Shown here: one piece after another, positions 32,961 through 49,922 of the stretch
How positions within the stretch are numbered: the stretch's first letter is position 1
How the letters are laid out: each line of letters starts with the position of its first letter
Source of the DNA: an uncultured Oscillospiraceae bacterium
GTDB taxonomy: Bacteria > Bacillota > Clostridia > Oscillospirales > Oscillospiraceae
DNA length: 64,000 nucleotides
Direction of reading: 5' to 3'
Assembly (NCBI GenBank): GCA_949841355.1
Contig: CATKZP010000003.1
Coordinates: 124,001-188,000, forward strand
Made by a program: the position numbers and the translations under genes
The notes under the pieces: model-generated
Told to the model about the DNA's origin: nothing
Seen by the model: only the letters and a program-made list of their open reading frames with translations
Databases searched by the model: none

Positions 32961-33152
32961 TCATTTGTCAAAAGCCGGATTAGTGAAGTACACGTTTTTC
33001 TGGTCCAGCCTCTGTTTGACCAGTTCGATGGCTTCGCCGAAGCGTTGGAAGTGGACAATCTCCCGCTCACGCAGAAAGCGGATGACATTGTTCACATCCG
33101 GGTCGTCGGACAGGCGGAGAATATTATCGTAGGTAAGGCGGGCTTTTTGTTC
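32961..33152 (-). pseudogene. cotJC: 3' part of interrupted cotJC (manganese-catalase-like coat protein)
   Basis: 63 codons with no start of their own. They encode the C-terminal end of a CotJC-type manganese catalase: EQKARLTYDN, LSDDPDVNNVIRFLRERE, VHFQRFGEA, ending NPAFDK. The N-terminal 135 codons are on the same strand at 49518-49922. Fusing the two at the shared GA gives EDLAAEQKARL in frame, 198 aa in total. Two of five Mn ligands (E136 and H169 of the joined protein, by analogy with L. plantarum catalase E148 and H181) are in this part, so the split gene cannot make an active site. A longer frame upstream of 33152 is element sequence. Confidence 0.92.
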
Positions 33153-33177
33153 TGCGGCGACCTTGCAAGGACAACAT
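33151..33177. other. Element attachment site, cotJC 3' side
   Basis: Crossover TC at 33151-33152, then a 17-bp arm (33153-33169) and GACAACAT (33170-33177). This is one half of the element attP. The cotJC side reads GCAGA-ACAAAAAGC on the coding strand. Confidence 0.82.
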
Positions 33178-33195
33178 TTGTGGGTTTGTCTGATG

Positions 33196-33855
33196 TTACT
33201 GCAACTGAACATATTCTGCAAGGTCAGGGTATGTTTCCAAATGTGTCCGCACATATGCGCGAGTGAATCCCGCGAACTTGTATGTACGGCTGAGCATTCC
33301 GCGCAGAGCCCGCAGACTCTTCTTAGATGCAGTTGATTGATATTCATGTAACTGCTTATAGAGCGAATCCATGGTTTTGCTCAGCTCGTCTATTCTGATT
33401 TTGCACTCCTGCTCCCGTATCCCTGTGTTTGTATGCTCAAAACAAGCGGTCAGCAAGTCAGCTGTTAAAACGGCCTCTTTTTCTGGCACTTGGGCCAATG
33501 GACAAACACAGACGTGCCCATTTGCAAGCTGATAATCGAGGATATTTTCCGGCTCAACTTTGCAGCAATCAAGAATCATATCATGGTATTTGGCCTGGTT
33601 TTTCAAAGAATTACAGTGGGAACAAGCCAGAAAAAGATTGGTCCAATCAAATTTGCGGTCTATATTGCCGCCATGGGGCCGCAGATGCTCAACTTCAATT
33701 CCGTGTGGAGGGGAAATCTCACAGAGATAGCACTTGTTATGAAAATCTTGACTGAGCTGTTCTGTGACATCCGGCTTCGTATAACTGCCGCAAGCCTTTT
33801 GCTTTTCTACCGCTAAAGACGCAGGAGGGATTGGGGTTCTCTCTATCTTGACCAT
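33196..33855 (-). CDS. ptuB: Septu-type HNH nuclease PtuB
   Basis: 219 residues with an HNH fold near the N-terminus: CYLCE (about 42), EVEHLRPHGG (about 55, catalytic His) and CSHCNSLKN (about 79), i.e. CxxC zinc pairs framing the His. The C-terminal half is helical. It stands 5 bp downstream of an OLD/AAA15-like ATPase; this ATPase-HNH pair is the Septu anti-phage layout, in which PtuA and PtuB form a complex that degrades DNA on infection. No reverse transcriptase is near, so it is not a retron-associated copy. Its stop is 43 bp from the element boundary. Confidence 0.83.
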   Translation of the reverse strand: MVKIERTPIPPASLAVEKQKACGSYTKPDVTEQLSQDFHNKCYLCEISPPHGIEVEHLRPHGGNIDRKFDWTNLFLACSHCNSLKNQAKYHDMILDCCKVEPENILDYQLANGHVCVCPLAQVPEKEAVLTADLLTACFEHTNTGIREQECKIRIDELSKTMDSLYKQLHEYQSTASKKSLRALRGMLSRTYKFAGFTRAYVRTHLETYPDLAEYVQLQ

Positions 33856-33860
33856 AGATA

Positions 33861-35096
33861 TTACCCCCTGTTGGCAAGTTCCAGCTTGAGACGGCTGTAT
33901 TCAGTGGCAAAATCCAAGGCAAGATAGTCGGGGACCTCGTCCAGATACAGTTCTAACTCGGCGGCCACGGCGAAATCTTCATCGGTTAAATGATCTTTTT
34001 GCACGAGTGTGCGGTATTGCTCAAACTTCTCACGCAATTTCTGGGAGAGAAGGTCCACACCAAAATAGCTTTCCACAATACCCTCATAGGGGAGATTAGT
34101 CAAACCGTTTTCTACCAGCGTATGCTTTTCAAGGTCATAGATTACAGCATTGGAAGCTGAATTGAGGATGAAGGGGGAGTGGGTGGTCATGATGAACTGG
34201 ATATTGGGAAAGAGCCCTGTAAGGATGGGCACGATTTGCTTTTGAAGTTCAACATGGAGGTGTGTTTCAATCTCATCAATGAGGACAATCCCCTCCAGAT
34301 CGTAGCTGCGCTGGGATTCCATGCGCATCATGAGGTCGCCGATAATGTCAAACACCGCGGCATATCCTGCGGACATTGTGTTGAAATCAAAAGGTTCCCG
34401 ATTGTTCATCAGAATTGAGAACTGGAAGGTTTCAATGTCGAAGTGAAGTTTCAGTGAATCATCGCCGTAAATCTTGCGTAAAACGGCTTCAAACCGTTGG
34501 AACCAGTTCTCAATTTCCTGGGCGCGTTTGGGGGTTCCTTCCGTTTTTGCAAAAGCCTGTGTCGCCTTTAGACTGGCCATGTATTTTGCTAATTGACGAA
34601 CGGGTTTGTCGGATAGCTTATAAATGGGGCGCAAATTTACTTTGGTAATGTCGCTAGAAATGTCTACCTTGCTATTACGGACATCCTCAAAGCGGGCAAA
34701 TATGAATTGACCTGCAAAATATTTTTCCCGCAGGGACTCTAATGATGTGTACTCAGGAACCGCTCCGTCTGTCCAGCGGGAAAGGTCTGTTTGCCACATC
34801 TTCAAACTTTTCTGCGCCTCTGCCTTTTTGTGCTTTCCCGCTTCAGTGTCATCTGCCTGTTCAATTTGTTTCAAATTATATTTGATTGAATTCTGGCACT
34901 TGTCCATTGGCGCATAAGAATTGGACAGAACATACTCAAAGTGCGAAATGAGCGCAGTCAAAACACTTGTCTTTCCGCTCCCGTTTTTTCCAGTAAGAAT
35001 TAGATTTTTACGGGCAGCAGCGGACAACGGAATATCAATATTCTCTAAATGACGAACCTTGTGAATGTGAATTCCAGTTAAAAAGGTCGGTTCCAT
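33861..35096 (-). CDS. ptuA: Septu-type ATPase PtuA
   Basis: 411 residues from ATG 35096 behind AGGAGG. It has the AAA15/ABC-like architecture: Walker A GKNGSGKTS (about residue 35), a long helical insertion, a signature region around FNTMSAGYAAVFDI, Walker B GIVLIDEIETHLH, and the switch His in MTTHSPFIL. Directly upstream of the HNH partner, it completes Septu. ATP binding by PtuA is thought to hold PtuB inactive until phage infection changes nucleotide levels. Confidence 0.83.
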   Translation of the reverse strand: MEPTFLTGIHIHKVRHLENIDIPLSAAARKNLILTGKNGSGKTSVLTALISHFEYVLSNSYAPMDKCQNSIKYNLKQIEQADDTEAGKHKKAEAQKSLKMWQTDLSRWTDGAVPEYTSLESLREKYFAGQFIFARFEDVRNSKVDISSDITKVNLRPIYKLSDKPVRQLAKYMASLKATQAFAKTEGTPKRAQEIENWFQRFEAVLRKIYGDDSLKLHFDIETFQFSILMNNREPFDFNTMSAGYAAVFDIIGDLMMRMESQRSYDLEGIVLIDEIETHLHVELQKQIVPILTGLFPNIQFIMTTHSPFILNSASNAVIYDLEKHTLVENGLTNLPYEGIVESYFGVDLLSQKLREKFEQYRTLVQKDHLTDEDFAVAAELELYLDEVPDYLALDFATEYSRLKLELANRG

Positions 35097-35220
35097 AGCC
35101 GTTCCTCCTGTGTTTGTTGACTTGAGTATACGTTGTTTGGCACGGAAAAACAAGCGGATTTCACTGTTTTTACTGACTTTTTCATTTGCCGAGATCTTAC
35201 AAAAGTAAACTGCTCTGAGG

Positions 35221-35451
35221 TCATTTCGTTTCTATCTGATCCGCAATGCGGTTGATCTTGTCTTGCATACGCTCCAGTCCTTTTTGAAGGCTACGCCTGT
35301 CCAGGCTGCTGTCACTGGCAGACAGCTCGGCCAGCAGGAGCATTTGGTGAAGGATGCGGTCGATCTCCGCAAGACCAAGCTCCAGGTTTTGACAAGGGGG
35401 AATATCAGAATTTTCTTGCGCCTGATAGGAGTTGATAGGTAAGTTATCCAT
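35221..35451 (-). CDS. Small helical protein of unknown function
   Basis: 76 residues from ATG 35451 behind TTTGGTGG. The C-terminal two thirds are predicted helical with heptad-like spacing (LGLAEIDRILHQMLLLAEL, LERMQDKINRIADQI). It could be a third, regulatory product of the Septu cassette or an unrelated small gene; it is 125 bp upstream of ptuA on the same strand. Confidence 0.5.
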   Translation of the reverse strand: MDNLPINSYQAQENSDIPPCQNLELGLAEIDRILHQMLLLAELSASDSSLDRRSLQKGLERMQDKINRIADQIETK

Positions 35452-35553
35452 GAAACCACCAAATTTTATTTTTTGCTTGTGCCGATGAGTATAGCATAAA
35501 TGTGGGCATAAATCAATAAATTCAGCCTGAATAGGTTTGCCTCGGACGCCAAA

Positions 35554-35585
35554 AAGCGGACTGACCCGGTTGGGTCAGTCCGCTT
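35554..35585 (-). terminator. Perfect 14-bp stem-loop
   Basis: AAGCGGACTGACCC and its complement enclose a 4-nt loop. The T-run is on the minus-strand side, so it would stop transcription coming from the recombinase side. Confidence 0.65.
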
Positions 35586-35651: not shown

Positions 35652-36785
35652 GTGAATTTTATTTTGAAGCAATACGATATTCCGCTGCTGAGCTTTTCCG
35701 CTTCCATGGACAGCATTGACCCGGAAATTGAAATCCTGTGGCATGACAACCGGCAGGAGCACTTGTTTCCGCTTGATTTACAGTTAAAGCCGGAGAGCCT
35801 GAGCCGTTGGCTGCGGCACAGGACGATTCCCAAAAACCGCGCCTATGTCCACTCCCTGCTGTCAAAGTGCGGCCTGAATTTGAACCGTCCCATGAGCATT
35901 ATCAAGGTGTGTAAAGGATTGTCGCTTAACGACAGTTATTGGGTGGTGGAGGAAGAGGACAACGGGACATTTGCGAAAAATAATCTGTACGAGAACCCCT
36001 TCAGCAATGTGCTGGCGGCCCTGGCCTTTACCGGCTATGGGAGCAGTCTGCGCTCATCCCTGCGCTCCAGCCCTGAGTTTACCACCAACGGAATGCTGCC
36101 CAAGTGCTGGCGCAGGGTGGACGGCAAGGTGACGCTTTACAAGGGCGGAACCATGGGCGCGTCCAACACGGGGTATGAGCCGTATTCTGAGTATTATGCC
36201 GCCCAGGTGGCCGCCGCCATGGGGGTCACCGCCATCCGCTACGGCCTGTCCAAGTGGAAGGGCGTGCTGTGCTCCACCTGTGAGTTGTTTACCAGCATGG
36301 ATGTGGGCTATCTGCCGGTGGGCCGGCTGGTGACCCAAGGGGGGATGCCCGCAGTGAGGGCCTATTATGAGAATTTGGGGGAACCGTATGTGGACGCGCT
36401 CCATGAAATGCTGGTATTTGACGCGGTGATCTGCAATGTGGACCGGCATTTTGGCAATTTTGGATTCCTGATCGACAGCCGGAGCAATCAGATTACCGCG
36501 CCCGCGCCGCTTTTTGACCACGGGAACGGGCTGTTCAACTTCGCTGGTACGGACTGCTGGAAGCGGGAAGGGGAGCTGGAGGAGTATATTCAAACCCTGA
36601 TGCCCTGCGTCTATGACGATTTCCTGGGGACGGCCAGGGATGCGCTGACCCCAAAGCTGAGGCAGGGTCTGCGGGGGCTGCTGGATTTCAAGTTCAAAAA
36701 ACATCCCCGGTATAACCTCCCGGAAAAGCGTCTGCGCATGGTGGAGGAACAGGTGCGGGCTCGGGCTCGAAAGCTGCTGGCGTAA
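35652..36785 (+). CDS. HipA-like kinase domain protein
   Basis: 377 residues. The C-terminal half has the HipA/CtkA kinase signature: FDAVICNVDRHFGNFGFLID (catalytic loop NxDRHxxN, about residue 255-274) and APLFDHGNGL (metal-binding Asp, about 290). The N-terminus is not the usual HipA N-domain, and there is no adjacent HipB-type antitoxin, so it is not a standard HipBA pair. Targets of such stand-alone kinases are unknown. GTG 35652 is the start. It lies between Septu and the recombinase in the element. Confidence 0.75.
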   Translation: MNFILKQYDIPLLSFSASMDSIDPEIEILWHDNRQEHLFPLDLQLKPESLSRWLRHRTIPKNRAYVHSLLSKCGLNLNRPMSIIKVCKGLSLNDSYWVVEEEDNGTFAKNNLYENPFSNVLAALAFTGYGSSLRSSLRSSPEFTTNGMLPKCWRRVDGKVTLYKGGTMGASNTGYEPYSEYYAAQVAAAMGVTAIRYGLSKWKGVLCSTCELFTSMDVGYLPVGRLVTQGGMPAVRAYYENLGEPYVDALHEMLVFDAVICNVDRHFGNFGFLIDSRSNQITAPAPLFDHGNGLFNFAGTDCWKREGELEEYIQTLMPCVYDDFLGTARDALTPKLRQGLRGLLDFKFKKHPRYNLPEKRLRMVEEQVRARARKLLA

Positions 36786-36789: not shown

Positions 36790-36833
36790 AAAAGCAGCTC
36801 AAAACCAATTAAGCGAGGTTTGGAGCCGCTTTT
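36790..36833 (+). terminator. Bidirectional terminator, kinase/recombinase
   Basis: AAAAGCAGCTCAAAACC and GGTTTGGAGCCGCTTTT pair at 15 of 17 positions with A/T runs at both ends; it is shared by two convergent genes. Confidence 0.8.
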
Positions 36834-38385
36834 AAAATTTCCAATGAATTTCCACGGGAATGTCCTGCGTCCCGGGAACGCGTTTGCCAACGGTGATGTA
36901 GTCGATGAGGGCCTCCACCATTTCCCGGGTCAGGTGATCCAGGTGGGCGTAGTGCTCCACAATGGCTTTTCGGTGATCGCCCTCCTCCATCCGGGCATCC
37001 AGCTGGGAAATTTGATGCTGGGTATGTTCCGCCAGCTGCTGAAGCCGGTCTTTTTCCGCTGAAAAGCTGGCGCTCATGTCTATGTAATCCTGTTCGCTGA
37101 CAATTCCCTTTACCTTGTCCATGTACAGCTCTTGAATGCCCTTGGCGTATTCCCCAATCTTTTTTTGATAGGCGGCCAAGCTGTCTTGCAGACGCTTTTG
37201 CTGGGATTTCAAGTCATTACAGAATTCAAGATTTCGTTCCAGCTCGTCTTTGTCGAGATATTCTGCGGAGAGCCGGTTCAATTCGTCGATGACGATGTGC
37301 TCCAGCTTGTCTACCGCGATAAAAGAGCCGATACAGGCGTCTTTCGCCACATGGCGGTTGGAGCACTGGAGATAGTGCCGGCCACGATTTTTTGAGGAGC
37401 GCATGGTATAGCCGCAGTTGGCGCAGCGCACCTTCCGGGCAAACAGGCCGATGGAGCCGCCGCTGAAGGGCTTGGCCCGTTGGGCCAGAATGGTCTGAAC
37501 ACGGTCCCACAGCTCCCGGTCAATGATCGGTTCGTGGGTGCCCTCCACGCGATACCACTCGCTTTTGGGACGGGGCTTGTTCTGTTTCGTCTTATAGGAC
37601 ACGCTGCCGTACTTTCCCTGCACCATATTGCCGATATAGATTTCGTTTTCCAGCATATCGGCAATGGCGAAGTACTTCCAAAGGGTGCTGTTTTTCCGCT
37701 TGGGCTGTTGATAGCGTAACCCGTGGAGGCGCTTGTATTCGGTGGGGTTGGGGATGCCCCGGTCGTTCAGCATTCGGGCAATGGCCGTCTTACCATAGCC
37801 CTGGGAGAAGAGGATAAACACCTCCCGGACAACGGCGGCAGCCTCCTCGTCCACGATAAGATGGCCTTTTTGCTCGGGGTCCTTTTGATAGCCATAGAGG
37901 GCAAAGGCGCCGATGTGAAAGCCGTTTTCCCTTCGATTGGTGAGAACGCTGCGGATGTTTTCAGACATATCCTCCAAATACCACTCGTTGACCAAGCCGT
38001 TGATTTGTCGGGACTTTTTGTTGCCCTTGTTGGCGGTGTCGGCGTTGTCCACAATGCTGACAAAGCGGATGCCCCAGAGAGGGAAGAGGCCGTGGATATA
38101 CTTTTCCACCAGCTCCAATTCGCGGGTGAAGCGGGACTGAGTTTTGCATAAGATGATATCAAATTTTCGCTGCTCGGCATCATGAAGAAGCCGCTGAAAT
38201 TCTGGGCGGTTTCGGTCTGAACCCGTGTAATCATCGTCACTGTAAATGTTATATACTTCCCACTGCTGTGCCATGGCGTATTGCAAAAGCATGGCTTTTT
38301 GGTTTTGAATGCTGTTGCTGTCCTGATCCTCAAACTGCTTGTTTCGGTCCTCTTCGGACAGGCGGCAGTAAATGGCTGCTTTCAC
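36832..38385 (-). CDS. tndX: Large serine recombinase, TndX/TnpX type
   Basis: 517 residues. The resolvase catalytic domain comes first (AIYCRLSEEDR with the nucleophilic Ser near residue 10, then ILCKTQSRFTREL). The recombinase domain follows at about 165-270 (IARMLNDRGIPNPTEYK), a zinc ribbon at about 308-350 (VRCANCGYTMRSSK...CSNRHVAKDAC), a coiled coil at about 380-440, and a DUF4368-like end (LTREMVEALIDYITVGKR). This layout is that of TndX/TnpX, which excise and insert elements at GA dinucleotides, as found at both ends here. The start is GTG 38385 behind GGAGGG. It is co-oriented with tnpW and predicted to drive excision and integration of the whole element. Confidence 0.93.
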   Translation of the reverse strand: MKAAIYCRLSEEDRNKQFEDQDSNSIQNQKAMLLQYAMAQQWEVYNIYSDDDYTGSDRNRPEFQRLLHDAEQRKFDIILCKTQSRFTRELELVEKYIHGLFPLWGIRFVSIVDNADTANKGNKKSRQINGLVNEWYLEDMSENIRSVLTNRRENGFHIGAFALYGYQKDPEQKGHLIVDEEAAAVVREVFILFSQGYGKTAIARMLNDRGIPNPTEYKRLHGLRYQQPKRKNSTLWKYFAIADMLENEIYIGNMVQGKYGSVSYKTKQNKPRPKSEWYRVEGTHEPIIDRELWDRVQTILAQRAKPFSGGSIGLFARKVRCANCGYTMRSSKNRGRHYLQCSNRHVAKDACIGSFIAVDKLEHIVIDELNRLSAEYLDKDELERNLEFCNDLKSQQKRLQDSLAAYQKKIGEYAKGIQELYMDKVKGIVSEQDYIDMSASFSAEKDRLQQLAEHTQHQISQLDARMEEGDHRKAIVEHYAHLDHLTREMVEALIDYITVGKRVPGTQDIPVEIHWKF

Positions 38386-38448: not shown

Positions 38449-38580
38449 TCAATGGACGGCCACGGTTTCTTTTGAGCGTTCGATTTGGTTGATGAGGCTG
38501 ATCCAGAGCTTTGTGTATTGCTCTGATGTAAGATTGTTGTGAAAGACGCTTTGGCAAAGGGGGTGGCGGTTTCCGTTCAT
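38449..38580 (-). CDS. tnpW: TnpW-like small transposon protein
   Basis: 43 residues from ATG 38580 behind AAAGGAG. The core HPLCQSVFHNNLTSEQYTKL and ISLINQIERSK match the small TnpW proteins encoded beside tnpX in Tn4451-like elements. Its function is unknown. It precedes the recombinase by 63 bp on the same strand and probably shares its transcript. Confidence 0.78.
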   Translation of the reverse strand: MNGNRHPLCQSVFHNNLTSEQYTKLWISLINQIERSKETVAVH

Positions 38581-38607
38581 GTGTAGTCTCCTTTCGTGGA
38601 TCAAAAT

Positions 38608-38637
38608 ATTGTATGCAAAAGAGCTTGTTCAATAGAC
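38608..38637 (-). promoter_or_regulatory. Candidate sigma-E promoter for tnpW-recombinase
   Basis: On the minus strand CATACAAT (38608-38615) is an exact sigma-E -10 consensus, with GTCTATTG (38630-38637) 14 bp upstream as a weak -35 (4 of 8). The predicted start lies near 38601, just before the tnpW ribosome binding site. No good sigma-A spacing was seen for the same hexamer. Confidence 0.5.
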
Positions 38638-38715: not shown

Positions 38716-39192
38716 TTAGTCCACAATTAGTTTATGTATCCCGTTTTCAGAAAGAATCTTTTTCAAGTGTTTTTGATACTGGTAATAGTCACTTTTCTTT
38801 CCTCTATATCGGCTGCCATCGACATATGAAATTTGGTTCATGACAAAATGAATATGAATGTCATCGGTATCCTCGTGGACAGCAGAAATGATTTGATAGG
38901 CATCTCCGTAGTAATTGATTGCTTCCTGAGCGATTTCTGCCGCTTCCGCTGCTGAAACATTTTCATTTGGCGCGAAACTGAGAATACTATGACGCAACCG
39001 TAGCCCGCTATTCTTTTCATATGCTACGGCTACGTCGTGCATTTCTGAAGCGGCGTATTGAGGGTCAACACCGCGAGCGAAGATTAGGTTTTGCGGGGTT
39101 TTTCTTTCCTGGAGACAGTAAGCCACTACATCATCAATTGCAGACTGATCGTAATACTGGTGCGGGGTGTGGATCACTTGATAGATTGCCAT
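38716..39192 (-). CDS. Short relaxase (MobA-like N-terminal domain)
   Basis: 158 residues from ATG 39192 behind GGAGG. The three-histidine relaxase motif is visible as DDIHIHFVMNQISYVDGSRYRGKK, given here in two parts around residues 120-143, and an early Tyr pair is in HTPHQYYD. Full mobilisation relaxases exceed 350 residues, so this is either a minimal relaxase or, more likely, a truncated remnant. It overlaps the mobC-like gene, the normal mob operon order. Confidence 0.75.
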   Translation of the reverse strand: MAIYQVIHTPHQYYDQSAIDDVVAYCLQERKTPQNLIFARGVDPQYAASEMHDVAVAYEKNSGLRLRHSILSFAPNENVSAAEAAEIAQEAINYYGDAYQIISAVHEDTDDIHIHFVMNQISYVDGSRYRGKKSDYYQYQKHLKKILSENGIHKLIVD

Positions 39193-39440
39193 GTGCTGTG
39201 CCTCCAATCCTTTAATTTGCGGCGCAAGGAGCAGTCGGTAACTTGGTCAATCAGCTCAGTAAGTGCGCACAGCTTTGCAAGAATGATCTGCTCATTGGTC
39301 TGTTTAGCCAGATTTGAAACATTATGCAAGGCTGCATTGCGCATATATTCAGATACAGAACACCCTTGATTTGCTGCGTGTCTTTCAATTTCTTCTTTTT
39401 CCTCTGTGCTCATACGAGTGTGAATTATTTCGCTTTTCAT
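39174..39440 (-). CDS. MobC-like relaxosome accessory protein
   Basis: 88 residues with an N-terminal ribbon-helix-helix region (HTRMSTEEKEEIERHAANQG, SVSEYMRNAAL), as in MobC/relaxosome proteins that bind oriT. ATG 39440 follows AAGGAAG. Its stop overlaps the relaxase start. Confidence 0.75.
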   Translation of the reverse strand: MKSEIIHTRMSTEEKEEIERHAANQGCSVSEYMRNAALHNVSNLAKQTNEQIILAKLCALTELIDQVTDCSLRRKLKDWRHSTWQSIK

Positions 39441-39852
39441 ATAATTACTTCCTTTTTATCTGAATTATCTTATTTTTAATGTATGTGTCATCATATAATT
39501 AAAATATAATATTTTGATATAAATTGTGAACGTATAAGTCAGTTCTCTTATCGCAAGGGGGAAGCACGCTGTGTTACACGCACTTCCCGGGGCCCTAAAA
39601 GTCTGTTGTGTGAGCGTTATTTTTTATTGCTCACGCGAACACTCGTGCAAGACCATAGGATTTGTTCCTCATTGATATGTTACAGCCCCTATCGAAAAAT
39701 ACGCTCCAGCTTTTTCTGGCTCATATCGGTGTCTACAAAGGCATGGGTAGATGCGTAAAAAATTATCAGAAAAAATTTATACGAAGAGAAAGTGAACTTA
39801 AATAAAAAGTTTTTTGTGATTGTGGCTTTTAGCGCGAATAAGGAGGCATGGA
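39441..39852. other. AT-rich intergenic region, candidate oriT
   Basis: 412 bp without a convincing gene, between the divergent mobC-like gene and the 705-residue gene. It contains the inverted repeat GTGAGC-gttattttttatt-GCTCAC (near 39612-39637) and a GC-rich patch (AAGCACGCTGTGTTACACGCACTTCC region, 39563-39590). This position and structure suit an origin of transfer, but I found no sequence I can match to a known nic site. Confidence 0.4.
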
Positions 39853-41970
39853 ATGAAGACGGTATCGGCGGAACAGTACTTGAAATACGCTGTAGAAAAC
39901 GCAAAAAATTATGTCGCTAATTGCGTCAACGTTGGGCTTCGAAAGCAAGCGGAAGATTTTTATATCCGCGCGATATTTCCGTGTTCAATATACGTCAATG
40001 GATCAAGAGGACAAAAACTGTATGATTTGCCATACCTAAAATATTGCAGTTTTTCGTATGTTGTATGTGAGATAAGGCTTGAGGTGGAAAAGCCGGAGAT
40101 AGCCTTAAAAATTGGGAAAAACCTTAGAAATTCCCAGGAATTTCAAACTGAAGTCGGCAAAGCAATTTTGAAGGAATTGTTACCGACATTGTATGGGCGT
40201 TCTTTTATTCCCCTGACAAAAGCGCTTGAAACTGTAATAATCCGATATGGAAATATAAAGAAGAAAGAAGTTGATGTTGATTCTATTTATCGGACACAAG
40301 CGGTTGAATTTAGTTTTAGCACAGAAAGAATTACCCAATTAACAGCAGGAGGTATTGAATACATACTTCCATCTAAGCCGCTTTTAAGGAAAATCAGCAG
40401 CAAGCTGCACAAGCTCTATTTACAAAAATTTTTTAATCCTGGCTCTGTTCATGATGAATACATGAGGTTGAACCAACGAGACAAAAAGTTTGAATTTCAT
40501 CGGCCAAGAGGTTGGATGGAAAACAACATGACGCCATTCTATTGTGGCCTTAAAGAGCTGAGCAAAGAAAAATTAGATTTTCAACCGAGATGGGAAAAAA
40601 CAGACTGCCCCGTTTCACTTGCTGAAGTCGAAGAAATCCTTTCTTTTGCCCCGCAGACGGTTTCAATTCCGTTATTCTCGTTTTCTATCTTTTCAATCAT
40701 AAAATTTTTCTTTACGAAATATCCGAGCCGGATTTCCATGAAAGACTCATATCAAAGTGTTACAAGAAGTCTGCGAAAAATACTGTTTCTATCTCTTGAG
40801 GGAAAAAATAAGACGGTTGCGCAGCAAATTGCTGAGTTATACTGCGGAACCTTTTTACGCCATTCTCTTGGAGGTACGCCCGCTCGCGATAATGAAAGCA
40901 AATATGTTCATGATGGAATCGTCATATATAGTGAAAATGTAAAAAGGCATTTGAGGATATCTGAGCGTAACATAGATTCATATTTAGTAAAAGATGCTTG
41001 TGCCCTGTTTGTTTGTATTCAACTTCCCATGAACGCAAAGCCCATTCGAATTAAGTTTGAGGGCACAATGGACAAGATATTTGAGGAAAGGTTGAAGAAT
41101 TGCCGAGACAAACTTGATTTGGTGCTACAAAATTTTATTGCGTGGCTGGAGGCATGTTGTGAAAACAATATAAGAGATTTCTCCGAGATAGAAAACTATG
41201 ATAATTTTGTACGCAAAATGAGCATTGAGGCCGAATACTCTATGTGGAAAGACTCTGTAAGCCGAACAATGAGGAGGACGTTTACAAAAATATTTGAAAA
41301 GTTCAACACTTTGTTGCTCAGATGTTCAGATGATCCTACGCGAAAAGAGAAGTTCTCATATTTGCTGGCCTCATTTTTAATTTTTACGCTATATTTGAGC
41401 GAATCATACGAAGAAGGAAACTCGAAACGTATTGAAGAATTGAGGAATGATGGTTTAGACGCGCTTTACAATTTATACGGTGAGAGTACGTCCATAGGTG
41501 ATATAGTGAAGACATTTTCTCAATATATTTCTCATCTGCTTATCACAAAAGCTATTATTCTGCTCCGGGGAGAACTGTCAGATACGGTATTGGGATGGTT
41601 TGATCCAAAGCGGAATGCTGTTTTTCTTAGATATAGCGAATACTATGAAAACTTTCTTGATTTTTGCAGGAAAAACAATTTTTATGCCCCAAAAATGTCA
41701 AAAGGCGATTTTCAGCCTAATGTTTTAGCAAAATGGGGATTTGTTCAATTGAGACAAAATGGAAAGGGGAGCGGATATTTCCGGGCCGACCGACGGATTC
41801 AAGTGAACCCCGTCAGCATAGAGGACACACCAAAAGAAAATGTGATAGAGATTAGTCTAAAACCATTTGAAAAATTAGCTCCGCTATCGCCTGAAGCTTT
41901 AGAGGTCATTTCTACTTTAAAAAAGCAAAAATTGAGGAGACGGGCGCAAAGCAAGAAAGCTATTGGCTGA
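39853..41970 (+). CDS. Large protein of unknown function (705 aa), AT-rich island
   Basis: ATG 39853 follows AAGGAGG. The protein is basic and mostly helical, without signal peptide; one hydrophobic stretch (IPLFSFSIFSIIKFFF) lies near residue 282. The C-terminal 100 residues (FLDFCRKNNFYAPKMSKGD, VLAKWGFVQLRQNGKGSGYFRADRR) look like a winged-helix or DNA-binding fold, but I cannot assign a family. Base composition is much lower in GC than the neighbours, which signals separate transfer. A hairpin terminator follows. Defence or replication roles are possible but unsupported. Confidence 0.75.
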   Translation: MKTVSAEQYLKYAVENAKNYVANCVNVGLRKQAEDFYIRAIFPCSIYVNGSRGQKLYDLPYLKYCSFSYVVCEIRLEVEKPEIALKIGKNLRNSQEFQTEVGKAILKELLPTLYGRSFIPLTKALETVIIRYGNIKKKEVDVDSIYRTQAVEFSFSTERITQLTAGGIEYILPSKPLLRKISSKLHKLYLQKFFNPGSVHDEYMRLNQRDKKFEFHRPRGWMENNMTPFYCGLKELSKEKLDFQPRWEKTDCPVSLAEVEEILSFAPQTVSIPLFSFSIFSIIKFFFTKYPSRISMKDSYQSVTRSLRKILFLSLEGKNKTVAQQIAELYCGTFLRHSLGGTPARDNESKYVHDGIVIYSENVKRHLRISERNIDSYLVKDACALFVCIQLPMNAKPIRIKFEGTMDKIFEERLKNCRDKLDLVLQNFIAWLEACCENNIRDFSEIENYDNFVRKMSIEAEYSMWKDSVSRTMRRTFTKIFEKFNTLLLRCSDDPTRKEKFSYLLASFLIFTLYLSESYEEGNSKRIEELRNDGLDALYNLYGESTSIGDIVKTFSQYISHLLITKAIILLRGELSDTVLGWFDPKRNAVFLRYSEYYENFLDFCRKNNFYAPKMSKGDFQPNVLAKWGFVQLRQNGKGSGYFRADRRIQVNPVSIEDTPKENVIEISLKPFEKLAPLSPEALEVISTLKKQKLRRRAQSKKAIG

Positions 41971-42589: not shown

Positions 42590-42694
42590 ATCAATGATAA
42601 ACTGAGCAGCGATATCCTGAGCCTTTTGGCCGCCGCTGTGGCCGCTGGATTATGCGCGGCCATCGACTACATTTTAGAGGAGGAAACAGACTGA
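42590..42694 (+). CDS. Possible 34-residue membrane peptide with non-ATG start
   Basis: Codons NDKLSSDILSLLAAAVAAGL then CAAIDYILEEETD form a membrane-helix-like peptide that ends in TGATG, coupling to the amidoligase. AAAGGAG stands 7 nt before an in-frame ATC at 42590; the nearby ATG (42594) is out of frame and stops after three codons. An ATC initiator would be rare, so this is tentative. Confidence 0.3.
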   Translation: MNDKLSSDILSLLAAAVAAGLCAAIDYILEEETD

Positions 42695-43806
42695 TGACAG
42701 AAACCTTTACCTGCTGTGCCTGTGGAGAGGTCCACCCGCTGGAGGATCGGACGGAGGTAGACGGGCAGGAGTTCTGCCGCCCCTGCCTGGAGGAAGAAAC
42801 CCTGTTGTGCCGCGAGTGCGGCCAGCGCATTTTGCGGGAGGACAACGCGGGAGACGATACCACACCCCTGTGCCAAAGCTGCTATGACCGCTATTACACC
42901 AACTGCACCCGCTGCGGGGCGCTGCTGGAGCTGGACCGCGCCTACTACCTCAGCGATGACGCGGACGAGGAGGAGCCGTTATGTCACGGCTGCTATGCGC
43001 TGCGTACCGATCCCGGAGAAATCCACAGCTATTACTACAAGCCGGACCCCATTTTCTACGGGGAAGGGGGCCGCTATTTCGGCGTGGAGCTGGAAATCGA
43101 CGGGGCGGGGGAGCGCAGCGACCGGGCGTGGCAGCTGGTGAACGCGGCCAACAGCAACGGTTTGGAGCACATCTATATCAAGCATGACGGTTCCCTGGAG
43201 GACGGCATGGAGATCGTCACCCACCCCATGACATTGGGCTACCACCTCGCGGAAATGCCCTGGGGTACAGTGGTAGCCCAGGCCGTCCGCATGGGCTACA
43301 CCAGCCATAAAGCCTGTACCTGCGGCCTCCATGTTCATGTCAACCGGGACGCCTTTGGTGAAACGCAGGAGGAGCAGGAGGCGGTGATTGCCCGCATCCT
43401 GTTCTTTGTGGAGAACCATTGGAACGAGCTGCTGCGGTTCAGCCGCCGCACCCGAGACCAGATGGAGCAGTGGGCGGCCCGGTATGGCCGGAAGGACGAC
43501 CCCAAGGCGGTGCTGGACAGCGCCAAAAAGGAACACTACCAGCGGTACAAATGCGTGAACCTGACCAATTATGATACCATAGAGTTTCGGATGTTCCGGG
43601 GGACGCTGAAGCTCAATACCCTGATTGCCACCTTGCAGATGGTTGACCGCATCTGTGAGGTGGCTTTGTATTTGTCCGACCAGGAGATGCAGGGCCTGAC
43701 CTGGACGGATTTTGTGTCCGGCTGTACCGCCCCGGAGCTGGTGCAGTACCTCAAGGAGCGGCGGCTCTACATCAACGAGCCGGTGGCCGTCTCCGAGGAG
43801 GTGTGA
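42694..43806 (+). CDS. Amidoligase-family enzyme with N-terminal zinc fingers
   Basis: 370 residues from ATG 42694 behind GAGGAGG. Residues 1-105 carry several CxxC pairs (CCACGEVH, CRPCLEEETLLCRECG, CQSCY, CTRCG, CHGCY) as LIM-like zinc fingers. From about 125 is the glutamine-synthetase-like amidoligase core: YFGVELEIDG, KHDGSLEDGMEIVTHP, ACTCGLHVHVNRDAF and NYDTIEFRMFRGTLK. The family forms amide bonds with ATP. The next gene, a class II glutamine amidotransferase, is a known partner type, so the two probably modify a peptide or wall component together. The substrate is unknown. Confidence 0.85.
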   Translation: MTETFTCCACGEVHPLEDRTEVDGQEFCRPCLEEETLLCRECGQRILREDNAGDDTTPLCQSCYDRYYTNCTRCGALLELDRAYYLSDDADEEEPLCHGCYALRTDPGEIHSYYYKPDPIFYGEGGRYFGVELEIDGAGERSDRAWQLVNAANSNGLEHIYIKHDGSLEDGMEIVTHPMTLGYHLAEMPWGTVVAQAVRMGYTSHKACTCGLHVHVNRDAFGETQEEQEAVIARILFFVENHWNELLRFSRRTRDQMEQWAARYGRKDDPKAVLDSAKKEHYQRYKCVNLTNYDTIEFRMFRGTLKLNTLIATLQMVDRICEVALYLSDQEMQGLTWTDFVSGCTAPELVQYLKERRLYINEPVAVSEEV

Positions 43807-43808
43807 CC

Positions 43809-44768
43809 ATGTGCGCCATTTTCGGAGTGCTGGACTACCAGGGAAAGCTGACCCCGCCCCAGCGGATTGGGCTGTTTCGGGCGCTGGCGGATGCCGCCCA
43901 AGTCCGGGGGACAGATGCCAGCGGCGTAGCCTTTGTCCATAACGGGTCGGTTCAGATTCAGAAAGCCCCCCGGCCCGCCTGTAGAATGCGCTGGCGCATT
44001 CCTTCCCAGGCCCGGTATCTCATGGGCCACACCCGCATGACCACCCAGGGCGCGGCCAGCAGGAACTACAACAACCATCCCTTTCCTGGCAGGGCCGGAA
44101 GCCAGCCTTTTGCCCTGGCCCACAACGGGGTGATCTACAACGATGTGGAACTGCGTAAGGCCCGGAATCTGCCCGCCACAAAAATTGAGACAGACAGCTA
44201 TGTGGCGGTGCAGCTTTTGGAGGGGCAGGGCGGCTTGTCCATGGACGGCTTGCGGCAGATGGCCGAGGCGCTGCGGGGAACGTACACCCTCACGGTGCTG
44301 GACGGGGACAATACGTTGTACTTTGTGCGGGGGAATAATCCACTCGCCATCCGCCTGTACCCTCGACTGGGCTGCTACCTCTACGCCTCCACCGACGAGA
44401 TATTAAACGCGGCGCTGGCGGGGTTGGGACTGTCCGGGCTGTCCTATACCGAGGTCCCCATCGGCCAGGGAGAGATTATGGCCATTGACGCCCAGGGCCG
44501 GCGCACCGCCTCCCGTTTTGACGATGCTCACATCCAAACCCAGTTTTGTTTTGATTGGGGGTGGAGCGGCCCCGTCTGCGAATATGACGCAGACAGCTAT
44601 TTGGAGATGGTGGTGGAGTACGGCAAGCGCCGGGGTGTGCCGGAACGGGAGCTGCGGCTGCTGACAGAGGCCGGGTACGACGCCTTGGATCTGGAGGAGA
44701 TGATCTACGACAAGCAGTTCCGGGTGTACTGCCTCCGGGAGATCATGGCGGAGTACGGGGTGCGTTGA
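43809..44768 (+). CDS. Class II glutamine amidotransferase
   Basis: 319 residues. ATG 43809 places Cys at position 2 (MCAIFGVLDY), which becomes the N-terminal nucleophile after Met removal; this choice of start is decisive. Further motifs are RGTDASGVA, MGHTRMTTQGAA, NNHPF, LAHNGVIYND and ETDSYVAVQLL. The C-terminal 90 residues are not a synthase or isomerase domain, so it is stand-alone and likely supplies ammonia to, or removes an amide from, the product of the amidoligase encoded 2 nt upstream. Confidence 0.87.
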   Translation: MCAIFGVLDYQGKLTPPQRIGLFRALADAAQVRGTDASGVAFVHNGSVQIQKAPRPACRMRWRIPSQARYLMGHTRMTTQGAASRNYNNHPFPGRAGSQPFALAHNGVIYNDVELRKARNLPATKIETDSYVAVQLLEGQGGLSMDGLRQMAEALRGTYTLTVLDGDNTLYFVRGNNPLAIRLYPRLGCYLYASTDEILNAALAGLGLSGLSYTEVPIGQGEIMAIDAQGRRTASRFDDAHIQTQFCFDWGWSGPVCEYDADSYLEMVVEYGKRRGVPERELRLLTEAGYDALDLEEMIYDKQFRVYCLREIMAEYGVR

Positions 44769-44881: not shown

Positions 44882-45220
44882 TTATTCCTGTTCTGCCAGG
44901 TGCGCCGTCAAATCCTGGCCCTTGGTACAGACGGCTCGAATAAAGACTTGCCGCCCGTCCTCGTCCACACTGTACAGCACCACATCATTCCGGGTGACAT
45001 ACTGCCGGACGCCCCGTCCTTCCCACAGCTCCACATTGTAGGGCTGGTACTTGAACGGGAAAGTGGTAAGCTGTTTCTGAATCTCAAATTTCAGCCGAAA
45101 ATACCACTCCTCAGCCAAATTTGGATCATGAAACTGGGCCGCAATATAGTCCGCCTTTTCCTCAATGTCCTGTATGGCGCTTTCGGTGTAGACAATCTTA
45201 TACTGCGGTATCTGTGCCAT
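44882..45220 (-). CDS. RelE/ParE-family toxin
   Basis: 112 residues with the RelE/ParE fold: YKIVYTESAIQDIEEKADYI, then GVRQYVTRNDVVLYSVDED and VFIRAVCTKGQDL. Its start overlaps the antitoxin gene by 23 bp, the usual translational coupling. Whether it cuts mRNA or poisons gyrase cannot be told from sequence. Confidence 0.85.
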   Translation of the reverse strand: MAQIPQYKIVYTESAIQDIEEKADYIAAQFHDPNLAEEWYFRLKFEIQKQLTTFPFKYQPYNVELWEGRGVRQYVTRNDVVLYSVDEDGRQVFIRAVCTKGQDLTAHLAEQE

Positions 45221-45506
45221 GGGCGAACCGTCCTTTCATGCGGCGGTCAAGCTCGTCCTGGCTGTATACCCGGCCCGCCGCAATATCGGCTTCGCTTCGG
45301 AGCAGCTTGGCATCTACCTCCTGGGCGGTCATATTTTCCCAGGTTTTGAGAGTAGGACGGAAAGGCATCCCCCCCTCCCGCAAGCTCTGCTGGGCAAAAA
45401 TGCGCACGGCCTCCGCAAAAGAAGTGCCTAAATTGCGGTATAGCTCCTCCACTTCGGCCTTGAGGTCACTGTTCATTCTGATTTGCAGGGTGGCATCCAT
45501 TGCCAT
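45198..45506 (-). CDS. RelB/DinJ-family antitoxin
   Basis: 102 residues from ATG 45506, 8 nt after AAGGAGG. The ribbon-helix-helix part is ATLQIRMNSDLKAEVEELYR and GTSFAEAVRIFAQQSL; the C-terminal half should wrap the toxin. A perfect inverted repeat covering the ribosome binding site (45519-45542) is a likely autorepression operator. Confidence 0.87.
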   Translation of the reverse strand: MAMDATLQIRMNSDLKAEVEELYRNLGTSFAEAVRIFAQQSLREGGMPFRPTLKTWENMTAQEVDAKLLRSEADIAAGRVYSQDELDRRMKGRFAHGTDTAV

Positions 45507-45518
45507 ATCCACCGCCTC

Positions 45519-45542: not shown

Positions 45543-45587
45543 TATTCCCTTGCGTCAAGAAAACTTGCTTGAAAGGAAGTGGCTGAT

Positions 45588-46139
45588 TTGAAAATAGGTT
45601 ACGTCCGTGTCAGCACCCAGGAGCAGAACACCATCCGGCAGGAGCTGCTAATGGAAAGCCTGGGTGCGGATGAGGTCTACATCGACCGCATGAGCGGCAA
45701 AAGCACAGACAGGCCGGAGCTGAAAAAGCTGATGGAGTACGTGCGCCGGGGCGACACGGTAATTGTGGAATCCATCAGTCGGTTTGCCCGGAATACCCGC
45801 GACCTGCTGGAGCTGGTGGAACGGCTGTCGGCCAAAGGGGTAGAGTTCGTATCCAAAAAGGAGGCCATCGACACCACCACCCCCAGCGGGAAGTTCATGC
45901 TTACCATTTTCGGGGCGGTGGCCGAGCTGGAGCGGGAGTACATCCTACAGCGCCAGCAGGAGGGGATTGCCATTGCCAAGGCCCAGGGGGTTTATAAGGG
46001 CCGGAAGCCCATCGAACGCCCTGAGTTTCCCCAGGTGGTGAAGCTGTGGCGGGAGGGGAGGATCACGGCGGTGGAGGCTATGCGGAGGCTGGATATGAAG
46101 CCCAGGACATTTTATCGGAGGGTGAAAGCCCAGCCATGA
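45588..46139 (+). CDS. Small serine recombinase (resolvase/invertase)
   Basis: 183 residues. TTG 45588 follows AAAGGAAG, giving KIGYVRVSTQEQNT (nucleophilic Ser in RVST), DRMSGKSTDRPELKKL, SISRFARNTRDLLEL and a C-terminal HTH of the Hin type (TAVEAMRRLDMKPRTFYRRV). It acts on a short site near its gene in related systems. It is a second recombinase in the element and could belong to an older nested transposon. Confidence 0.9.
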   Translation: MKIGYVRVSTQEQNTIRQELLMESLGADEVYIDRMSGKSTDRPELKKLMEYVRRGDTVIVESISRFARNTRDLLELVERLSAKGVEFVSKKEAIDTTTPSGKFMLTIFGAVAELEREYILQRQQEGIAIAKAQGVYKGRKPIERPEFPQVVKLWREGRITAVEAMRRLDMKPRTFYRRVKAQP

Positions 46140-46153
46140 TACACAAGAAAAGA

Positions 46154-47965: not shown

Positions 47966-48231
47966 TGTTTCCCTGTCAAAGATGCGGTATGTGCTGCCGG
48001 AATTTGCAGCTTTCCCTTCTATACCACGAGTTGGATCGCGGAGATGGAACTTGCAAATATCTAAACGGAAATCTTTGCAGCCGATATGATGACCGCCCGC
48101 TTTTCTGTCGCATAGACGATTGCTACACATTGTTTTTTAAGGATGTGATGTTGATTGAGCAGTACTATAAATTGAATCTGGAGATGTGCAAAAAACTACA
48201 AAGGAAAGAAAATCACAAGGAGGATTACTAA
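47965..48231 (+). CDS. YkgJ-type cysteine-cluster protein
   Basis: 88 residues beginning FPCQRCGMCCRN, with CKYLNGNLCSRYDDRPLFC further on. This CxxCxxCC...C pattern is the zinc/iron-chelating domain of the YkgJ family, a domain of unknown biochemical role. It is short and consists of the cluster plus a helical tail. It is coupled to both neighbours. Confidence 0.78.
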   Translation: MFPCQRCGMCCRNLQLSLLYHELDRGDGTCKYLNGNLCSRYDDRPLFCRIDDCYTLFFKDVMLIEQYYKLNLEMCKKLQRKENHKEDY

Positions 48232-48232
48232 A

Positions 48233-49273
48233 ATGCCATTACCGTTGATCTTAGGAGTCGGAGCGGCTGCCGCTGCCGCTGTAGGAGTTGGTGGGGCAGT
48301 ACATGGCGGCGTAAAAATGAAGCAGGCCAACGATACCATGAAGGACGCGCAATCCAAACACGAAAAAAATATCAAACATTTTGAGGAAGAAAATAAAAAG
48401 ACAACAACCGCAATGGATGAACTCGGCAAAAAGGAGCTGGAGATTTTGTCCAGCTTCAAGCGGTTCAGTGCCATTTTTGAGCGAATTCAAAACAAGCCCG
48501 AATTTAAACCCTATAAAAAAGATGATGTTGAAATCCCGTCTTATGACGCCGAGGAGCTGGAAAAGGTTTACGTTGGTGCCGGTGTGCTGTTAAGTGGGTT
48601 GAGCGGTGCCGGTCTGGGTGCCGCTGGAGGGTTTGCCGCGGCAGGAGCTACCACTGCGGCAGTGATGGCTCTTGGAACCGCTTCCACCGGAACGGCAATT
48701 GCCTCCCTGAGCGGAATTGCTGCAACCAACGCGACGTTGGCAGCCTTGGGAGGCGGTGCTATCGCGGCGGGCGGCGGTGGAATGGCATTGGGAACTACAA
48801 TCCTCGGCGCAACTACGCTTGGCGTTGGCCTTTTGGTCGGTGGAGTTATTTTTAATATCGCGGGGATTACCATATCAGGCAAAGCTGACAAGGCCATGGA
48901 GCAAATGAAGATGGCTCAAAAAGAAATTTCGCTTATTTGTGCGTATCTGAAAGACCTGTATGATACGGAGCAGCGTTTTGAAAAGTGCCTCCTGTCTGTC
49001 AACCGGGTATACCGGCTTCATTTAGACAATCTGGAGCAGATGGTAGTTTTGAACGGGAAGACGGATTGGAACCAGTATAGCGAACAGGAAAAATTGGTAA
49101 CAGAAAATACCGTTTTGCTGGTCAATACGCTATATCAAATGTGCAAGGTGAAGCTGGTCATCGTTGCAGAAGGAGATTCAGAACTGAATACGGTCAACCA
49201 TGCGGAAGTAGAGAAATCCATTCGTACAGCTGATGCGTTTATGGAGGAGAAAGGGTTCCCTACAACAGCATAA
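48233..49273 (+). CDS. Glycine-zipper membrane protein of unknown function
   Basis: 346 residues; the start follows AAGGAGG. After a short hydrophobic N-terminus and a charged helical stretch (about 25-100), the middle (about 115-215) is a long Gly/Ala-rich zipper region (GVLLSGLSGAGLGAAGGFA, AALGGGAIAAGGGGMALGT, LGVGLLVGGVIF). Such regions pack membrane helices and can form pores. The C-terminal 125 residues are helical and soluble. It could be the membrane effector of a toxin or defence module with its two partners; that is inference from architecture only. Confidence 0.75.
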   Translation: MPLPLILGVGAAAAAAVGVGGAVHGGVKMKQANDTMKDAQSKHEKNIKHFEEENKKTTTAMDELGKKELEILSSFKRFSAIFERIQNKPEFKPYKKDDVEIPSYDAEELEKVYVGAGVLLSGLSGAGLGAAGGFAAAGATTAAVMALGTASTGTAIASLSGIAATNATLAALGGGAIAAGGGGMALGTTILGATTLGVGLLVGGVIFNIAGITISGKADKAMEQMKMAQKEISLICAYLKDLYDTEQRFEKCLLSVNRVYRLHLDNLEQMVVLNGKTDWNQYSEQEKLVTENTVLLVNTLYQMCKVKLVIVAEGDSELNTVNHAEVEKSIRTADAFMEEKGFPTTA

Positions 49274-49308
49274 GCTACCAAGGTTCATACATTGCTTTTA
49301 TCATGCGA

Positions 49309-49341
49309 AATGCCCGAGCGGGATCATCCCGCCCGGGCATT
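49309..49341 (+). terminator. Hairpin after the three-gene operon
   Basis: AATGCCCGAGCGGGAT pairs with ATCCCGCCCGGGCATT (15 of 16). A T-run is lacking, but the stem is strong. From here to the element boundary (49342-49515) I see only the tail of the chimeric cotJC frame and a weak 42-codon frame without a binding site. Confidence 0.65.
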
Positions 49342-49349
49342 CGCCCCCT

Positions 49350-49922
49350 TCATCCCACTGTTTTTATACCGCTAACGCCACAGCCACCGCGTTCATCACC
49401 GCCAGCTCCTCCCGGGCGAAGTAGTCCCGGAGCGTCCGCCATCTCCGCCAGCGCCTTTCCCGCCATCCCGGCGCACACCAGCGGACTCCCATGTTGTCTT
49501 TTCACCATCGCCCCATCAGCGGCCAAATCCTCTGTTAAATCTGCAATGACATCCCCTGTAACCTGCATGGTGGAAGCGGACCAGGGATAGCCAGAGGCAA
49601 ATTGAGGATAGACACCGGTGGTGTGGTCCACAAAATAGGTGTCAAACCCGGCGGTTTTTATCTGATCTTCGCTGAGATTACGGGTGAGCTGATGAACTAG
49701 CGTGCCCACCATTTCTAGGTGCCCCAATTCCTCGGTCCCGATGTCAGTGAGCAGCCCCTTCAGCTCGTGGTAGGGCATGGCATAGCGCTGGGAAAGATAG
49801 CGCAGGGATGCGCCCAGTTCGCCATCTGGTCCACCATATTGACTGATAATCACCGAGGCCAGTTTGGGATTGCAGTTTTTGATGCGTACAGGATATTGCA
49901 GCTTTTTCTCATAGACAAACAT
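49350..49922 (-). CDS. cotJC: 5' part of interrupted cotJC with element-encoded tail
   Basis: The native part is residues 1-135 (49922 down to 49518), a manganese-catalase-like spore coat protein. It holds three Mn ligands by analogy with L. plantarum catalase: E35 (GPDGELGA), E65 and H68 (TEELGHLEM). After EDLAA the frame runs into element sequence and adds 55 unrelated residues (GAMVKRQHGSPL onward) before a stop, so ligands four and five are absent. Excision at GA would restore AAEQKAR and a 198-aa protein. The start follows the cotJB stop by 3 bp. The family sits in the inner coat and is made in the mother cell. Confidence 0.92.
   Translation of the reverse strand: MFVYEKKLQYPVRIKNCNPKLASVIISQYGGPDGELGASLRYLSQRYAMPYHELKGLLTDIGTEELGHLEMVGTLVHQLTRNLSEDQIKTAGFDTYFVDHTTGVYPQFASGYPWSASTMQVTGDVIADLTEDLAADGAMVKRQHGSPLVCAGMAGKALAEMADAPGLLRPGGAGGDERGGCGVSGIKTVG
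49491..49517. other. Element attachment site, cotJC 5' side
   Basis: Crossover TC at 49516-49517, a 17-bp arm (49499-49515) and ATGTTGTC (49491-49498), the mirror image of the other end. Reading outward from GA on both arms, 11 of 17 arm positions and all 8 distal positions agree. Confidence 0.82.

What the first reader, a model, noticed from the sequence alone, without database searches (positions are those of the whole stretch)
33151..49517. A 16.4-kb element splits the spore coat gene cotJC and would restore it in frame on excision
Seen: codons 1-135 of a CotJC-type manganese catalase (49922-49518) and codons 136-198 (33152-32961) lie on the same strand, separated by 16,365 bp. Joining them at the shared GA gives EDLAAEQKARL in frame and brings together all five expected Mn ligands (E35, E65, H68, E136, H169). 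A large serine recombinase lies inside. Known: sigK-skin, spsM-SPbeta and gerE elements interrupt mother-cell genes and are excised during sporulation. Inference: this is a developmentally excised element in a new target gene, carrying defence cargo. The rival view is a mobilisable element that has simply knocked out cotJC.
Basis: partly seen in the sequence, partly recalled or inferred. Interest (0 to 1): 0.95.

Follow-up and report, generated by a model that had tools for sequence, protein, structure and literature searches.

The report
Removable DNA inside a spore-coat gene
In a family of gut bacteria the gene for a spore-coat enzyme is repeatedly cut into two to four pieces by mobile DNA elements that carry their own excision enzyme, yet the pieces are conserved as if the gene still works, which suggests that the DNA is cut out and the gene rejoined when spores form.

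Summary
Observation confirmed. cotJC lies in two same-strand pieces around a 16.4-kb element; joining at the shared GA of the Glu136 codon restores 198 codons. It is not an isolated knock-out. In Oscillospiraceae relatives cotJC is broken at five recurring points (codons 30/31, 62/63, 64/65, 136, about 175), in up to four pieces; breaks also occur in single-contig genomes. Each point has its own clade of large serine recombinase (75 LSRs, five groups, minimum changes). In 71 genomes chosen for fetching, no trimmed piece holds a stop. In four species pairs whose elements align over most or all of their length, split cotJC has 1-8 non-synonymous against 44-69 synonymous differences, so split copies stay under selection. 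Site-136 LSRs follow a conserved small ORF (candidate directionality factor), 14 of 20 with a sporulation-type -10 upstream. Best reading: a skin-like intervening element in a new target gene, excised by its LSR, most likely in the mother cell, with Septu and BnzB-like cargo. Excision and timing are inferred; elements also jump between species. New variant of a known kind; capped listings showed no interrupted cotJC.

The parts
49518..49922 (-). cotJC 5' piece, codons 1-135
32961..33152 (-). cotJC 3' piece, codons 136-198 and stop
49516..49517 (-). GA crossover dinucleotide in attL
33151..33152 (-). GA crossover dinucleotide in attR (first two bases of codon 136)
36832..38385 (-). large serine recombinase, 517 aa (PF00239, PF07508, PF13408), site-136 clade
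38449..38580 (-). 43-aa ORF upstream of the LSR, conserved with site-136 LSRs; candidate recombination directionality factor
   Evidence: function inferred
38607..38615 (-). CATACAATA, sporulation-type -10 candidate before the 43-aa ORF
38716..39207 (-). relaxase, MobA/VirD2-like, 163 aa (short for a relaxase)
39174..39440 (-). NikA-like mobilisation protein
33196..33855 (-). PtuB-like HNH protein (Septu)
33861..35096 (-). PtuA-like ATPase (Septu)
35652..36785 (+). HipA-like / PDC-M03A-like protein (weak)
39820..41970 (+). 716-aa protein without family match
42652..43806 (+). amidoligase_2-like protein
43803..44768 (+). class II glutamine amidotransferase-like protein
44882..45512 (-). RelB/ParE-type toxin-antitoxin pair
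45579..46139 (+). small serine resolvase, 186 aa
46592..47965 (+). BnzB-like defence protein
48233..49273 (+). PDC-M09A-like candidate defence protein
49926..50384 (-). cotJA-cotJB fused ORF, first gene of the cotJ operon
50431..50439 (-). CATAAGCTG, conserved sigmaK-type -10 of the cotJ operon

Best explanation
The 16.4-kb segment is an integrative, mobilisable-type element that entered cotJC through its LSR at a conserved attB on the Glu136 codon. It persists because it is removable: in the mother cell of a sporulating cell the LSR, helped by the 43-aa product encoded just upstream (candidate directionality factor), recombines attL with attR, releases a circle and leaves an exact 198-codon cotJC that is transcribed from the cotJ promoter. 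The mother cell dies, so the element stays in the spore's chromosome. Shown by sequence: att sites, frame restoration, LSR and its site fidelity, selection on split cotJC in relatives. Inferred: excision itself, mother-cell timing, role of the small ORF.
For: Exact att sites and in-frame join. Site fidelity: 20 of 20 listed LSRs with >=59% identity lie in cotJC at this site. Five LSR clades, one per break point (quick tree). 68 of 71 genomes with broken cotJC show an LSR ORF in the fetched stretches (none in G005, G038, G040). 77 breaks with both sides held, no stop in trimmed pieces. dN/dS median 0.154 over 496 split-split pairs, 0.157 over 2338 intact pairs, dS under 1.2. Four pairs whose elements align over most or all of their length show N/S of 4/69, 8/63, 1/44, 6.5/58.5; P 9e-26 to 3e-37 against neutrality; LSR dN/dS 0.09-0.23. 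Window cotJC against G036, both split at 136: 6.5/85.5. cotJ promoter sigmaK-type in 41 of 72 genomes against 1.0 expected. Site-136 LSRs: CATANNNTR within 350 bases in 14 of 20 (2.5 expected) against 13 of 48 control LSRs, Fisher P 0.002; a homologous small ORF before 19 of 20 at E<1e-10 (8 of these are the profile's seeds), before none of 50 control and none of 53 other cotJC LSRs at E<0.4. sigE and unbroken sigK candidates are in the genome (told apart by me from their places).
Against: No excised junction was seen: two attP patterns found nothing in viral contigs and no reads were available. The window element shares only about 1.9 kb (mostly the LSR) with that of G007, so its age is unknown. 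LSRs also move between species: G036-G024/G035/G037 LSR dS 0.32-0.45 with cotJC dS 1.8 or more, G326-G120 0.41 against 1.30, G194-G080 0.39 against 0.79, so some insertions are recent. Of 35 single-hit genomes 22 hold an incomplete set of pieces, by loss or draft gaps. G312-G080 has dN/dS 0.31. For the other four LSR clades the -10 is not above control LSRs (16 of 51 against 13 of 48, P 0.67), and the controls themselves exceed shuffles. The -35 AC pattern of the cotJ promoter is absent from all 71 LSR upstreams. A sigmaE consensus scan found nothing, and failed on its cotJ positive control.
Confidence: 0.76

Rival explanations
1. A mobilisable defence element simply inserted into cotJC and inactivated it; the pieces are intact only because insertions are recent.
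For: LSR closeness across species and genera with far older cotJC divergence shows fresh transfers; mobilisation genes and cargo; incomplete sets of pieces in 22 of 35 single-hit genomes.
Against: Four pairs share the element and show strong purifying selection on split cotJC; no stop in trimmed pieces of 71 genomes; genes in three or four pieces remain open.
Confidence: 0.1
2. The element is reversible but not developmentally timed: it excises at low rate in all cells, and selection acts through the minority with intact cotJC (as with the heterogeneous yin element in yabG).
For: yin is found excised at all time points (passages of PMC10747680); the -10 signal is not above control LSRs for four of five clades.
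Against: Genes broken two or three times at once would need several low-rate excisions in one cell; site-136 LSRs have an enriched sporulation-type -10 and a conserved small ORF upstream.
Confidence: 0.13
3. The pieces are expressed separately and act as a split protein, with no DNA rejoining.
For: Would also keep the pieces under selection; no tool result speaks for it.
Against: Breaks fall on LSR att cores; some pieces are only about 30-35 codons long and the recalled metal ligands lie in different pieces.
Confidence: 0.01

Closest known systems
skin element in sigK (Bacillus subtilis, Clostridioides difficile)
   Same: LSR-bearing element splits a mother-cell gene and is excised to restore it; in C. 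difficile a 72-aa factor, CD1234, under sigmaE and SpoIIID directs excision (abstract and passages of PMC5025042).
   Different: Other gene; here five LSR clades use five points of one gene; cargo is defence and mobilisation genes; excision not yet shown.
gin element in gerE (Bacillus cereus ATCC10987)
   Same: Non-phage element in a small sporulation gene with serine recombinases and an extra factor, GirX (abstract and passages of PMC5595907).
   Different: Reported in one strain; no repeated family-wide targeting in the passages seen.
yin element in yabG (Clostridium botulinum)
   Same: Element with an LSR and a putative small directionality factor in a spore-coat-related gene of a clostridium (abstract and passages of PMC10747680).
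   Different: Described as unique to strain V73; prophage-like.
Heterocyst interruption elements of cyanobacteria
   Same: Several elements in one gene, up to four in nifD of Rivularia sp. PCC 7116; 10 of 87 interrupted genes carry several (passages of PMC4874684).
   Different: Other cell type and phylum; serine and tyrosine recombinases there; here only LSRs were looked for.

Membership tests
Sporulation gene-intervening (skin-like) element | Interrupts the coding sequence of a sporulation gene | tested here: met
   cotJC in two pieces, cotJ operon with sigmaK-type promoter
Sporulation gene-intervening (skin-like) element | attL/attR recombination would restore the reading frame | tested here: met
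   in silico join at GA, att arms with inverted repeats
Sporulation gene-intervening (skin-like) element | Carries its own site-specific recombinase | tested here: met
   LSR 36832-38385
Sporulation gene-intervening (skin-like) element | Interrupted gene remains functional for the host | tested here: met
   purifying selection on split copies in relatives; for the window copy only by comparison with a relative split at the same site
Sporulation gene-intervening (skin-like) element | Directionality factor under sporulation control | tested here: inconclusive
   conserved 43-aa ORF and -10 candidate; function untested
Sporulation gene-intervening (skin-like) element | Excision during sporulation, in the mother cell | not testable with these tools
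   no cultures or reads
Integrative and mobilisable element (IME) | Integrase plus relaxase without a conjugation machine | tested here: met
   LSR, NikA-like and relaxase genes; no secretion-system family among the 17 element ORFs scanned with Pfam; the relaxase ORF is only 163 aa
Integrative and mobilisable element (IME) | Transfer between cells | tested here: inconclusive
   LSR divergence far below host-gene divergence in some relatives implies transfer; not shown for this element

The most novel reading that the evidence does not exclude
Spore formation in Oscillospiraceae includes an assembly step at DNA level: cotJC, and in some species sigK as well, are built in the mother cell from two to four pieces by several independent serine recombinases, each with its own attB on a highly conserved stretch of the gene, possibly in order (sigK first, then the sigmaK-type cotJ operon).
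Probability: 0.5. Interest if true: 0.95.

Novelty: new variant of a known kind. Interest (0 to 1): 0.86.

Why it matters
The cases of developmentally excised elements in endospore formers that I saw in print concern one element in one gene. Here one 594-bp coat gene is the target of five LSR clades across a gut family, with up to three elements at once and selection on the broken gene. It makes testable why mobile elements prefer genes used only in a dying cell, gives a natural set of LSRs with known attB sites, and warns that cotJC and sigK may be annotated as truncated or missing in gut genomes that can still sporulate.

Tried and rejected
Recent-insertion knock-out as the general explanation: rejected on the selection tests, kept as a rival for single cases. 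Assembly artefact: rejected, since breaks occur in the single-contig genomes G138 and G404. sigmaE consensus scan upstream of LSRs: uninformative, it failed its positive control. sigmaK-type pattern with a -35 AC: 0 of 71 LSR upstreams; only the -10 is enriched. Circular attP in viral contigs: none for two patterns. Contig overlap at site 136 in G027 as a sign of mixed excised and integrated DNA: a 77-base overlap, but off-centre from the core, so not used. Two other LSR stretches of the window's genome (L297, L298): no split sporulation gene recognised by eye among the ORFs; no family search was run on them. Structure prediction was not run: the joined protein is not in the DNA letter for letter and the candidate factor has 43 aa.

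Rows dropped before counts: HSPs under 45% identity, or weak and under 60%; codons next to each break were trimmed; the 71 genomes are those whose stretches I chose to fetch, not a random sample, and a few are represented by one piece. The 98 intact sequences include duplicates of one record under two ids. Tree: LSR ORFs under 400 aa were left out, one LSR of L079 was not assigned, sites were assigned by me from position; the careful tree was not finished, the quick tree is reported. Control LSRs (40 fetched, 39 used, plus 9 of L052-L061) were picked away from known cotJC places; for the 39 I did not check by search what they interrupt. Synteny was tested in 9 pairs: G252-G129 aligned end to end, G094-G237 nearly so, G220-G342 and G205-G297 over most of their length, G007-G008 over the larger part, the other four in part.
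Full report
Observation. The genome (2.76 Mb, 44 contigs) holds no other Mn_catalase match. cotJC follows a fused cotJA-cotJB ORF, so this is a cotJ operon. Its upstream region was aligned in 14 genomes: CATAAGCTG or a near variant stands about 50 bases before the operon; over 72 genomes 41 have AC-N15-17-CATANNNTR against 1.0 expected from shuffles, a sigmaK-type promoter by recalled consensus.

The element. It carries a 517-aa LSR, a NikA-like protein and a short relaxase, PtuA and PtuB of Septu, a BnzB-like and a PDC-M09-like protein, a RelB/ParE pair, a small resolvase and HTH proteins, an amidoligase-like and a class II amidotransferase-like protein, and a 716-aa protein without family match. 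It is best described as an integrative mobilisable-type element with defence cargo.

att sites. Aligning 17 left and 19 right ends of site-136 breaks puts the crossover on GA, the first two bases of the Glu136 codon; most element arms show the inverted repeat expected of an LSR attP. The distance between the two GA is 16,365 bp.

Relatives. In the genus (42 genomes) 37 have a cotJC hit: 12 are full length and 25 partial. In 400 family genomes, drawn evenly by the tool from a larger group, 315 have a hit at E<=1e-6. Of 92 genomes with two or more hits searched again, I read about 88 by eye as pieces that meet at recurring codons; exceptions or unclear cases are G212, G296, G375 and G415. Of 35 genomes with one partial or weak hit, 22 show pieces that end at the same codons without a complete set, 7 are nearly full length and 6 have only a distant paralogue or a trace. 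The listing was capped; breaks near codon 175 hide there among near-full-length hits (G112, G156, G243). So roughly 88 to 110 of 315, or more.

Five points, five clades. The breaks lie at codons 30/31 (core GGNGG), 62/63 (GGTAC in most), 64/65 (GARGAR), 136 (GA) and about 175 (GGYGA). Two fall on codons of recalled metal ligands (65, 136) and two lie within five codons of one. Of 71 genomes 68 show an LSR ORF in the fetched stretches (not G005, G038, G040). A tree of 75 LSRs puts each break point in its own clade: five groups, four changes, the least possible (quick tree). G034 has three breaks in one gene; 12 of 71 genomes have two or more with both sides held.

Are split genes alive? In 71 genomes no stop remains in the trimmed pieces, and split-split pairs have the same dN/dS (median 0.154, 496 pairs) as intact pairs (0.157, 2338 pairs). 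That alone could reflect recent insertion. I therefore looked for pairs that inherited the element. Elements of G252-G129 align end to end over 9.0 kb (89.8%), those of G094-G237 nearly so (4.8 kb, 85%), those of G220-G342 over 4.3 of 4.6 kb (78%) and of G205-G297 over about 2.8 of 3.0-3.3 kb (79%). Their cotJC differences are 4 N/69 S, 1/44, 8/63 and 6.5/58.5; neutrality is rejected at P 2.8e-37, 9.0e-26, 6.7e-31 and 1.4e-29, and their LSRs have dN/dS of 0.12, 0.09, 0.23 and 0.17. LSR and cotJC synonymous divergence are 0.71/0.76, 0.87/0.46, 0.92/0.69 and 0.86/0.59, so the fit to shared descent is best for G252-G129 and loosest for G094-G237. A functional gene in these lineages while split implies rejoining in the cells that need it.

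Against this: elements also jump. G036 shares a 96-97% identical LSR with G024, G035 and G037 although cotJC dS between them is 1.8 or more; G326-G120 and G194-G080 show the same in milder form, and nearly the same LSR occurs in G404 and G321 of other genera. G312-G080 have dN/dS 0.31. For the window's element, LSR and cotJC divergence to G007, G013 and G036 are alike but near saturation (1.2-1.3 against 1.15-1.21), and only the LSR region and a short stretch align with G007, so its age is open. Window cotJC against G036 has 6.5 N/85.5 S.

Control of excision. CATANNNTR occurs within 350 bases upstream of 14 of 20 site-136 LSRs (2.5 expected), 16 of 51 other cotJC LSRs (5.0 expected) and 13 of 48 LSRs outside cotJC (10 of 39 with 3.9 expected, 3 of 9 with 1.3 expected). 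Only the site-136 class exceeds the control LSRs (Fisher P 0.002; others P 0.67), and these LSRs are related to each other. The full arrangement of -10, ribosome site and small ORF was found before 21 of 73 cotJC LSRs and 6 of 48 controls (P 0.045). A profile from 8 small ORFs of the site-136 class finds a homologue at E<1e-10 before 19 of 20 site-136 LSRs (8 of them the seeds; L228 only at E 2.1), before 3 of 7 further LSRs of this class at E<1e-6, and before none of 50 control and 53 other cotJC LSRs (best control E 0.45). In the window it is a 43-aa ORF at 38449-38580. By analogy with CD1234 (72 aa, PMC5025042) it is my candidate directionality factor. The genome has unbroken sigK and sigE candidates, told apart by me from their places; they lie below the curated cut-off of the sigK model, which none of the 42 genomes nor any control, B. 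subtilis included, reached.

Known work. Searches with cotJC or coat terms together with intervening-element, prophage, integration or recombinase terms listed no paper on an interrupted cotJC; the lists were capped (20 of 1,157, 20 of 12,109) and cover only the open library. Known cases are sigK, spsM, gerE, spoVFB and yabG (passages of PMC5595907 and PMC10747680; PMC4191935 only in search listings). The main text of PMC10083194, a large LSR survey, has no 'catalase' or 'cotJC' (supplements not seen). Several elements in one gene are known from heterocysts (passages of PMC4874684), so the principle is not new; its extent in spore formers appears to be.

Verdict. The finding is real and larger than stated. 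It works like a skin-type element; membership lacks the demonstration of excision in sporulating cells and of the directionality factor.

Noticed in passing
G034 C12:53959, C12:63169, C65:12040; G002 C102; G005 C81; G015 C28; G014, G037, G040; loci L299, L300, L305: sigK-like matches are split near codons 67 and/or 110 in several species of the genus; an LSR ORF lies in the three stretches I fetched (G015, G034, G002). The window's genome has its sigK candidate unbroken.
   Followed up: partly
L062, L063, L064, L065, L066, L067 (IMG/VR contigs): Contigs listed as viral carry site-136-type LSRs near cotJC pieces; one contig is 69 kb, so phages may use the same integration site.
   Followed up: no
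window 50551-50694 (+) and 50764-52131 (+): A 47-aa cysteine-rich peptide (read) followed by a protein that looks like a radical SAM maturase, as in the SCIFF peptide system (recalled, no family search), lies upstream of the cotJ operon.
   Followed up: no
window 42652-44768; L302 3073-5110: The amidoligase-like and amidotransferase-like pair seems to recur, by eye, in another genus beside a different LSR: perhaps a mobile cargo pair.
   Followed up: no
L079 6742-8205 (-): A further LSR sits inside the codon 64/65 element of G034, possibly an element within an element.
   Followed up: no
G183 C1:71980, 112357 (-) and 129685 (+): cotJC pieces on opposite strands, which suggests an inversion between att sites or another rearrangement.
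   Followed up: no
L257-L296 upstream regions: LSRs outside cotJC also show CATANNNTR above shuffles (10 of 39 against 3.9), and some have small ORFs with an F-x-G motif before the LSR; what they interrupt was not determined.
   Followed up: partly
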